Positions 6,026-6,604 of a stretch of DNA of 64,000 nt are shown one piece after another. How positions within the stretch are numbered: the first letter of the stretch is position 1; the number at the start of each line of letters is the position of its first letter. Source of the stretch: Prochlorococcus marinus str. MIT 9215. GTDB taxonomy: Bacteria; Cyanobacteriota; Cyanobacteriia; PCC-6307; Cyanobiaceae. A program made the position numbers and the translations under genes. Location of the stretch: contig NC_009840.1 of assembly GCF_000018065.1 (NCBI RefSeq), forward strand, positions 124,001 through 188,000. Direction: 5' to 3'. The notes under the pieces were generated by a model. That model worked only from the letters and a program-made list of their open reading frames with translations. It did not search any database and was not told the DNA's origin.

Positions 6026-6097
6026 TCCTCGGTAGCTCAGCGGTAGAGCGATCGACTGTTAATCGATTGGTCGCAGGTTCGAATCCCGCCCGGGGAG
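6026..6097 (+). tRNA. trnN: tRNA-Asn (anticodon GTT)
   Basis: A complete 72-base cloverleaf can be folded by hand. The acceptor stem TCCTCGG (6026-6032) pairs with CCGGGGA (6090-6096), and the discriminator is G6097. The D arm is GCTCAGCGGTAGAGC. The anticodon loop reads TGTTAAT with anticodon GTT for asparagine. The T arm is GCAGG/TTCGAAT/CCCGC with one A-C mismatch. CCA is not encoded, as the window also encodes a CCA-adding enzyme. The 3' end recurs twice just downstream, indicating use as an integration target. Confidence 0.97.
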
Positions 6098-6121
6098 CTT
6101 TAATCTACCTCTAAGTAATGT

Positions 6122-6146
6122 AAAGAGATCTTAGGATCTCTTTTTT
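6122..6146 (+). terminator. Rho-independent terminator after tRNA-Asn
   Basis: AAGAGATC (6123-6130) pairs with GATCTCTT (6135-6142) around a TTAG loop, and the T tract runs 6141-6146. A near-identical hairpin with the same TTAG loop follows the third copy of the tRNA 3' end near 6580. Confidence 0.8.
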
Positions 6147-6216
6147 GTTGTAAATACTAACTCGCCGAGACAATATGAAACTATAGCAGCTTAAATATTA
6201 TTCCTATTCCTGAAAA

Positions 6217-6270
6217 ATGTTCGCTAAATGTTCGCTATCCAGGAAATAAATGTTCGCTATTTTTTCGCTA
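6217..6270 (+). repeat. Short direct repeats ATGTTCGCTA
   Basis: ATGTTCGCTA occurs at 6217-6226, 6228-6237 and 6250-6259, and TTTTTCGCTA at 6261-6270. A second short repeat, GGCATAAC, follows at 6288-6295 and 6308-6315. The repeats lie between the tRNA-Asn gene and the second copy of its 3' end. Clustered decamers next to a tRNA attachment core resemble the arm-type sites bound by tyrosine recombinases or excisionases; that role is inference. Confidence 0.6.
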
Positions 6271-6340
6271 TAAATAAATTCGTTCTCGGCATAACTAGGT
6301 ACATTTAGGCATAACAATGCATCTGATTTATTAATTAAAA

Positions 6341-6356
6341 CCCGCCCGGAGAGCTT
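6341..6356 (+). repeat. Second copy of tRNA-Asn 3' end (attachment-site scar)
   Basis: Sixteen bases match the tRNA 3' end at 6085-6100 with one change (G to A at 6350, giving GGAGAGCTT). The upstream part of the tRNA is absent, so it is not a functional tRNA. It is followed within 20 bases by a hairpin terminator. This is the pattern left when an element integrates into a tRNA 3' end and later decays. Confidence 0.7.
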
Positions 6357-6373
6357 TCTAACAAATCCATAAG

Positions 6374-6403
6374 AACTCATATGCGGTCATATGGGGTTTT
6401 TTT
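6374..6403 (+). terminator. Terminator-like hairpin after second tRNA-end copy
   Basis: AACTCATATG (6374-6383) can pair with CATATGGGGTT (6388-6398) around CGGT with one bulge, and T7 runs 6397-6403. It sits in the same relative place as the terminators after the first and third copies but has a different stem sequence. Confidence 0.6.
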
Positions 6404-6409
6404 GCACTT

Positions 6410-6523
6410 ATGACTGATTAGTCGGCATTTTTCATCGTTCACACGTACTCATAATAGGTCAGAGTTTTAGGCGAAAATGTGTTTTTTATTTGCTCGGTTA
6501 TGACTCTTCATGACTGGTTATGA
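6410..6523 (+). repeat. Second set of short direct repeats (ATGACTG / GGTTATGA)
   Basis: ATGACTG occurs at 6410-6416 and 6510-6516, ATGACT also at 6500-6505, and GGTTATGA at 6496-6503 and 6516-6523. The set lies between the second and third tRNA-end copies and differs from the TGTTCGCTA set upstream, as if each scar carried its own recombinase-arm sequences. The function is inferred from position only. Confidence 0.45.
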
Positions 6524-6540
6524 AAGTTTGGTATAACTTA

Positions 6541-6554
6541 CGCCCGGGGAGCTT
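6541..6554 (+). repeat. Third copy of tRNA-Asn 3' end (attachment-site scar)
   Basis: Fourteen bases, CGCCCGGGGAGCTT, match the tRNA gene at 6087-6100 exactly. The flanking sequence upstream is unrelated to the tRNA. About 25 bases downstream lies a hairpin (AGATC, TTAG, GATCT) almost identical to the terminator that follows the intact tRNA, so the duplicated unit includes both tRNA end and terminator. Confidence 0.75.
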
Positions 6555-6578
6555 CTTAATTAAATGTAATCAGACAAA

Positions 6579-6604
6579 TAGATCTTAGGATCTGTTTTTT
6601 TTTT
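6579..6604 (+). terminator. Terminator-like hairpin after third tRNA-end copy
   Basis: AGATC (6580-6584) pairs with GATCT (6589-6593) around TTAG and is followed by T10 (6595-6604). It is a near copy of the hairpin at 6122-6146. Confidence 0.7.

What the first reader, a model, noticed from the sequence alone, without database searches (positions are those of the whole stretch)
6026..6604. Three stacked copies of the tRNA-Asn 3' end: layered integration scars
The intact tRNA-Asn is followed by two truncated copies of its 3' end (6341-6356 with one mismatch; 6541-6554 exact), about 256 and 198 bases apart. Each of the three copies is followed by a terminator hairpin, and the first and third hairpins share the GATC-TTAG-GATC core. 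Tyrosine-recombinase elements that insert into tRNA 3' ends restore the tRNA and leave a partial copy at the far side, so two extra copies imply at least two successive events. Integrative elements called tycheposons are known to use tRNA genes in Prochlorococcus. No integrase gene remains here, so this reads as a decayed hot spot.
Basis: partly seen in the sequence, partly recalled or inferred. Interest (0 to 1): 0.75.

Follow-up and report, generated by a model that had tools for sequence, protein, structure and literature searches.

The report
Stacked mobile-element scars behind tRNA-Asn
Behind one tRNA gene of this marine cyanobacterium lie the fused, emptied ends of several mobile elements that seem to have inserted there one after another, while relatives still carry fuller versions at the same spot, so it records how these abundant ocean microbes exchange genes.

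Summary
In detail: the tRNA-Asn 3' end recurs at 6343-6356 (1 mismatch) and 6541-6554 (exact). Comparison with 100 tRNA-Asn loci from related genomes supports layered integration and extends it. At least three, probably four, integrations are recorded. In relatives many such elements share an anatomy: tRNA core, terminator-like hairpin, an element-specific 11-12-bp 'word' in tandem, cargo, the same word in tandem, about 70 bp, displaced core. Units 1 and 2 of the window are left and right ends fused at the words, without cargo; 13 of 66 core-to-core intervals are such 169-257-bp minis. A diverged tyrosine integrase sits at this site in 4 of 100 loci; none of that type was found in this genome. 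So this is a stranded scar array at a site that is in use across the genus. It resembles tycheposons, but membership could not be tested. The variable-word layout and 'solo' scars may be undescribed; the word's role as an integrase arm site is inferred.

The parts
6026..6098 (+). intact tRNA-Asn (GTT), the target; its 3' end with two following bases is core 1 (6087-6100)
6087..6342 (+). unit 1: cargo-less element, left end and right end fused (256 bp)
   Evidence: left half aligns to the left end and right half to the right end of the cargo-bearing element in G138/L037; same cargo-less form in G006/L036
6122..6143 (+). terminator-like hairpin of unit 1
6217..6271 (+). tandem 11-bp words of unit 1 (two copies, spacer, two copies); proposed arm-type sites and fusion point
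6343..6356 (+). core 2 (one mismatch), displaced tRNA-Asn 3' end
6343..6540 (+). unit 2: cargo-less element (198 bp), ends fused in ATGTGTTTTTTAT (6477-6489)
   Evidence: left part aligns to an element left end in G088/L047, right part to a right end in G098/L049
6376..6395 (+). terminator-like hairpin of unit 2
6541..6554 (+). core 3 (exact), displaced tRNA-Asn 3' end
6541..6830 (+). unit 3a: left end of a further element with hairpin about 6576-6597; right limit approximate
   Evidence: aligns to the second element of G067/L059 and to the post-tRNA sequence of G033/L039; hairpin by fold only
6840..6968 (+). unit 3b: fused ends of an element with word GTGCAGGTGAT (6909-6919); starting core lost, left limit approximate
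   Evidence: 6861-6919 aligns to left ends in L093 and L083, 6933-6968 to a right end in L093
6957..6968 (+). decayed core 4 (TCATCCTTTGAG against TCGCCCGGGGAG), junction with the native flank
   Evidence: 6 mismatches to CCGCCCGGGGAG
6969..7303 (+). native right flank of the empty site, with decayed native terminator (about 6993-7023) and 12-bp repeats (7087-7120, 7177-7198)
   Evidence: directly follows the tRNA in 21 empty-site loci

Best explanation
The region 6099-6968 is a stack of at least three, probably four, remnants of integrative elements that inserted by site-specific recombination into the 3' end of tRNA-Asn. Each insertion restored the tRNA with the element's own copy of the 3' end, usually followed by a terminator-like hairpin, and pushed the old copy to the far side (supported by comparison with empty and occupied sites). 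Many of these elements carry their own 11-12-bp word in tandem at a fixed distance from the core, the same word at both ends (shown statistically). The words most likely are arm-type binding sites of the element's tyrosine integrase, as recalled for phage lambda or Tn916 (inferred). In this strain the cargo between the word clusters is gone, most simply by recombination between identical words, leaving 'solo' scars of about 200-250 bp (geometry shown, mechanism inferred). The integrase type that sits at this site in relatives was not found in this genome, so the array looks stranded; mobilisation in trans by an incoming integrase is not excluded.
For: Three cores, chance 0.01, no other copy of the 13-mer in the genome. 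Native flank placed in 53 of 101 loci: 21 empty (12 of them the queries, chosen for a short tRNA-to-gene distance), 31 inserted including the window, 1 (L126) misassigned as empty although its next gene is 12.6 kb away; of the 30 other inserted loci 21 have a core with at most 2 mismatches at the junction, against 1 of 20,000 random positions. Unit 1 ends match L037 ends, unit 2 ends match L047 and L049 ends, units 3a/3b match L059 and L093/L083 ends. Tandem word scoring 8 or more left of 36 of 64 far cores against 10 of 640 random windows; left and right words agree within elements (mean 8.2 vs 6.5 matches, 0 of 10,000 permutations, 51 elements, the short ones scoring 0 included). Best tandem ends 66-73 bp from the core in 53 of 66 far cores. 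Terminator-like hairpin within 75 nt after 153 of 166 cores against 48 of 606 random windows. 28 full elements with matched words predict a fused length of 171-246 bp; 13 of 66 core-to-core intervals measure 169-257 bp. Unit-1 word pair in 6 of 266 genus genomes: two copies 0.9-3 kb apart in four, one copy in the two cargo-less ones. Integrase of one sequence cluster in L068, L093, L129, L133 of 100 loci, with a small serine-recombinase ORF of one cluster in the same loci.
Against: The window holds no integrase, cargo or intact element. The native flank could not be placed in 48 of 101 loci, and 9 of 30 inserted loci lack a junction core at 2 mismatches (5 of these have 3). Core 4 has 6 mismatches and is identified by its neighbours; unit 3b has no starting core. 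Some far cores are chance hits (for example L047 13056, L062 4837). Covariation of the integrase N-terminal region with the word was not significant (rho 0.27, p 0.08; partial p 0.20; 13 integrases).
Confidence: 0.87

Rival explanations
1. The cargo-less units are not deletion scars but miniature integrative elements that integrate as such, mobilised in trans by an integrase that recognises their word (MITE-like).
For: Unit 1 here and in G006/L036 has the same fused junction and 87-90% identity, although G006 is not among the closest relatives at the flanking genes (rank 40 of 100, 69 of 85, 53 of 84) and the sequence beneath differs. 13 of 66 core-to-core intervals are such minis. Of 61 fetched relatives with candidate inserts put into, one (G081) has a PF00589 match at the site; three more carry the diverged integrase.
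Against: Recombination of the tRNA locus between strains, or loss of deeper layers by core-to-core deletion, would look the same. No free form was seen, but the only test was an exact 23-mer scan of viral contigs (0 hits).
Confidence: 0.25
2. The words are binding sites of a small AlpA/Xis-like protein, or replication iterons, rather than integrase arm sites.
For: An AlpA-like ORF starts 89-103 bp from the right core, beside the words, in 16 of 70 right ends examined, with two further such ORFs at other distances; four of four tested match PF05930 Phage_AlpA.
Against: Tandem words at the same distance occur where no such ORF was found beside them (TTCGCTA, TTCGTC and GTGTGCC types) and in integrase-bearing elements at tRNA-Ser genes.
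Confidence: 0.25
3. The repeats are a conserved non-mobile structure, such as tandem terminators of the tRNA-Asn transcript.
For: Terminator-like hairpins follow the copies and most cores in relatives.
Against: Copy number and spacing vary widely, kilobases of cargo lie between copies, and 21 relatives have no extra copy before the native flank.
Confidence: 0.04

Closest known systems
Tycheposons of Prochlorococcus (Hackl et al. 2023, Cell; recalled, paper not held)
   Same: Prochlorococcus, tRNA-directed integration, tyrosine recombinase, variable cargo; relatives of the site integrase also lie at tRNA-Ser genes, and 5 of 8 tRNA-Ser loci examined show matching words at both ends.
   Different: Whether tRNA-Asn is among their seven tRNA targets (number taken from PMC10872708) and whether their integrases are of this type could not be checked; the window holds only emptied ends.
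Picocyanobacterial tyrosine integrase cluster158946 (PMC10187409, passages read)
   Same: Diverged tyrosine integrase, frequently near a small serine recombinase, in variable islands of Prochlorococcus.
   Different: Reported near tRNA-Phe or tRNA-Cys and as distinct from tycheposon integrases; those found here lie at tRNA-Asn and tRNA-Ser where a tRNA was seen. Sequences were not compared.
Additive island fGI-2 of 'Ca. Methylopumilus' (PMC10872708, passages read)
   Same: [quoted passage not shown] islands from 330 bp upward.
   Different: tRNA-Lys, another phylum; the passages read mention no word repeats or fused cargo-less units.
CIMEs (att-flanked elements without integrase) and solo LTRs (both recalled)
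   Same: Element ends with att sites and no integrase; a residue left by recombination between terminal repeats.
   Different: Trans-mobilisation is untested here; solo LTRs come from retroelements and are only an analogy.

Membership tests
tRNA-targeting tyrosine-recombinase integrative elements | duplicated tRNA 3' end at the far side, at the junction with the empty-site flank | tested here: met
   21 of 30 inserted relatives with at most 2 mismatches; in the window cores 2 and 3 are clear, the junction core is decayed (6 mismatches)
tRNA-targeting tyrosine-recombinase integrative elements | occupied and empty sites in related strains | tested here: met
   21 empty, 31 inserted including the window, 1 misassigned, of 53 placed; 48 of 101 not placed
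tRNA-targeting tyrosine-recombinase integrative elements | tyrosine integrase inside the element | tested here: not met
   none in the window and none of this type in the genome; present at the site in 4 of 100 relatives' loci
Tycheposons | integrase of the published tycheposon families | not testable with these tools
   paper not held, sequences not at hand
Tycheposons | cargo genes between tRNA and far core | tested here: not met
   in the window the only ORF of 40 aa or more between 6099 and 6968 is a 58-aa one at 6204-6380 (-); relatives carry cargo
Picocyanobacterial integrase cluster158946 | association with tRNA-Phe or tRNA-Cys | tested here: not met
   where a tRNA was found near the integrases examined it was tRNA-Asn or tRNA-Ser; several loci showed no tRNA
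CIME | att-like sites at both ends, no integrase | tested here: met
   units 1 and 2
CIME | mobilised in trans | not testable with these tools
   needs experiment

The most novel reading that the evidence does not exclude
Prochlorococcus tRNA-Asn (and tRNA-Ser) elements form a large, mostly integrase-less family in which a short element-specific word, held at fixed distances from the core at both ends, is the address by which a matching integrase mobilises an element in trans; cargo can pop out between words, and the 170-260-bp residues keep moving as miniature integrative elements.
Probability: 0.25. Interest if true: 0.78.

Novelty: new variant of a known kind. Interest (0 to 1): 0.55.

Why it matters
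The site is a compact record of repeated gene-island traffic in a very abundant photosynthetic microbe. A shared end anatomy with a changing word gives a simple rule for finding element ends, including integrase-less ones, in fragmentary genomes, and a concrete hypothesis for how integrase-less elements could be moved by others. It also suggests how a tRNA gene keeps a terminator after each insertion.

Tried and rejected
Conserved-structure or tandem-terminator reading: rejected as a full account because of empty and cargo-bearing sites. Copy 3 as the end of the stack: rejected, the native flank starts at 6969. Integrase N-terminal region against word: suggestive among the tRNA-Asn integrases (91% N-terminal against 82% C-terminal identity for the pair with the same word), but not significant over 13 of 17 integrases (two near-identical to a third and two without a clear word left out). 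Free or packaged forms: exact scans for two word pairs and a relative search with the integrase alignment found nothing in viral contigs. PF00589 is a poor detector here: of the four site integrases it found the L068 copy only (the L093 and L129 proteins were tested only through the genome search). Structure prediction was not run.

Limits: 100 of the 146 genus genomes with a match were fetched; many are incomplete assemblies, so islands run off contigs. Core counts are at up to 2 mismatches and include chance hits. Word statistics use one scoring rule of my own. Deletion between words and the arm-site role are inferred. At tRNA-Ser, 5 of 8 loci show the words on both sides (three of them near-identical to each other), L165 and L166 on one side by the score used, and L160 does not fit.

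Full report
Setting. The window is G000:C1:124001-188000 of a single-contig genome of 1,738,790 bp. The size fits Prochlorococcus MIT9215 (recalled). Relatives found by a word pattern are titled Prochlorococcus sp. AG-... (that such names are single cells is recalled), and contig lengths tie G006 to AG-347-B23 and G138 to AG-459-O09.

Observation. tRNA-Asn lies at 6026-6098. Its 3' end recurs at 6343-6356 with one mismatch and at 6541-6554 exactly; chance expectation 0.01 in the window; a 13-mer of it has no further copy in the genome at up to 1 mismatch. Hairpins follow the copies: the scan reports the first two, folding shows all three, with modest z-scores.

Comparison. 146 of 151 genus genomes match the query around the tRNA; I fetched the downstream region of 100 of them. 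The distance from tRNA-Asn to the response-regulator gene (window 8064) runs from 965 bp to 13.3 kb where both are seen. The start of the native flank could be placed in 53 of 101 loci including the window: 21 are empty (12 of them served as queries, chosen for short spacing), one (L126) was counted empty by the script although its next gene is 12.6 kb away, and 31 are inserted. In empty loci the tRNA is followed at once by sequence homologous to window 6969 onward, which has its own hairpin in most. In 21 of the 30 inserted loci besides the window a core with at most 2 mismatches sits at that junction, against 1 of 20,000 random positions; 9 do not show it at that threshold, 5 of these at 3 mismatches. 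This is what integration into a tRNA 3' end predicts. In the window the junction core (6957-6968) has decayed to 6 mismatches, and the native terminator region folds no better than shuffles.

Anatomy. Around cores in relatives a common plan appears. After a core comes a terminator-like hairpin (153 of 166 cores against 48 of 606 random windows), then, in many loci at about 95 or 130 bp, a tandem word of 11-12 bp, often with a third copy. Before the far core the same word stands in tandem; the best tandem ends 66-73 bp from the core in 53 of 66 far cores examined. Scores of 8 or more occur at 36 of 64 far cores against 10 of 640 random windows; left and right words of an element agree beyond 10,000 permutations (51 elements). 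At tRNA-Ser genes with relatives of the integrase, 5 of 8 loci show matching words at both ends, three of them near-identical to one another.

The window's units. Unit 1 is the left end of an L037-type element joined to its right end at the word TTCGCTA; unit 2 is an L047-type left end joined to an L049-type right end at GTGTTTTTTAT. Beyond core 3 lie a left end like those of L059 and L039 and the fused ends of a GCAGGTGA-word element like those in L093 and L083. So at least three and probably four integrations are recorded. 28 full elements with matched words predict a fused length of 171-246 bp; 13 of 66 core-to-core intervals measure 169-257 bp, among them units 1 and 2.

Integrase. Four of 100 loci (L068, L093, L129, L133) carry integrases of one sequence cluster; the far core is seen in L068, L093 and L133 and for the L129 element in L139. 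A small serine-recombinase ORF of one cluster lies in the same loci and in L050; the L068 copy matches PF00239. A fifth integrase lies beside a tRNA-Asn-type core with native flank in G110, and a fragment in G022. Pfam's integrase model finds the L068 copy only. Relatives occur in 16 of 151 genomes at E <= 1e-8, not in this one.

Spread of unit 1. The TTCGCTA word pair occurs in 6 of 266 genus genomes: twice in G059, G138, G202 and G214 (0.9-3 kb apart), once in this genome and in G006. The 18-kb stretches of G202 and G214 gave no tblastn match to the site integrase or resolvase, and there the element lies in the second layer. G006 shares the fused junction at 87-90% identity but ranks 40 of 100, 69 of 85 and 53 of 84 at three flanking genes, and has other sequence beneath; the cargo-bearing L037 and L038 left ends are only 72-77% identical. 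That leaves open that the cargo-less unit itself moved; recombination of the locus is the plainer alternative.

AlpA-like proteins. A 55-68-aa ORF starts 89-103 bp from the right core in 16 of 70 right ends examined, with two more at other distances (count checked); four of four tested match PF05930. They are candidates for excisionase-like partners or for the protein that binds the words.

Mechanism. Supported by comparison: repeated insertion at the tRNA 3' end, restoration of the tRNA, stacking, fused ends without cargo. Inferred: words as integrase arm sites, cargo loss by word-to-word recombination, possible mobilisation in trans. The test of integrase N-terminal region against word was inconclusive.

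Literature. Eight papers in the library name tycheposons; the defining paper is not held. Passages of PMC10187409 and PMC10872708 were read. Searches for Prochlorococcus integrases and islands, Prochlorococcus with tRNA-Asn, arm-type sites with non-autonomous elements and two more gave listings in which I saw no title or abstract start describing this site or the word layout; subscription papers are mostly missing, so this is weak evidence of novelty.

Noticed in passing
window 7087-7120 and 7177-7198: 12-bp tandem repeats (AGAACAGTATAT-like) about 127 bp after the junction core, present in most of the 20 empty-site flanks aligned, in the place where elements have their words; not seen in L057, L069 and after the far core of L049. 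The 'empty-site' flank may itself be an old, fixed cargo-less remnant.
   Followed up: partly
right ends in L074, L105, L108, L110, L128, L130, L170 and others: AlpA-like ORFs start 89-103 bp from the right core, beside the tandem words, in 16 of 70 right ends; four of four tested match PF05930.
   Followed up: partly
L157, L161-L163, L167 (both ends), L165, L166 (one end by score): Integrase-bearing elements at tRNA-Ser genes show tandem words near the ends; L160 does not fit.
   Followed up: partly
G000:C1:406003-406467 (L168): One of this genome's two PF00589 integrases lies about 0.6 kb from tRNA-Thr and tRNA-Tyr genes; the region was not examined further.
   Followed up: no
L188 (G214): Five tRNA-Asn cores in one strain, i.e. 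four stacked intervals, the last core followed by the native flank.
   Followed up: partly
L170 503-1516 and 4978-7872; L085, L053: Cargo of stacked elements includes a C-5 cytosine DNA methylase (PF00145) and a helicase/restriction-endonuclease protein (PF04851, PF13156), and very long ORFs (2788 aa in L085, 1623 aa in L053), whose function was not studied.
   Followed up: partly
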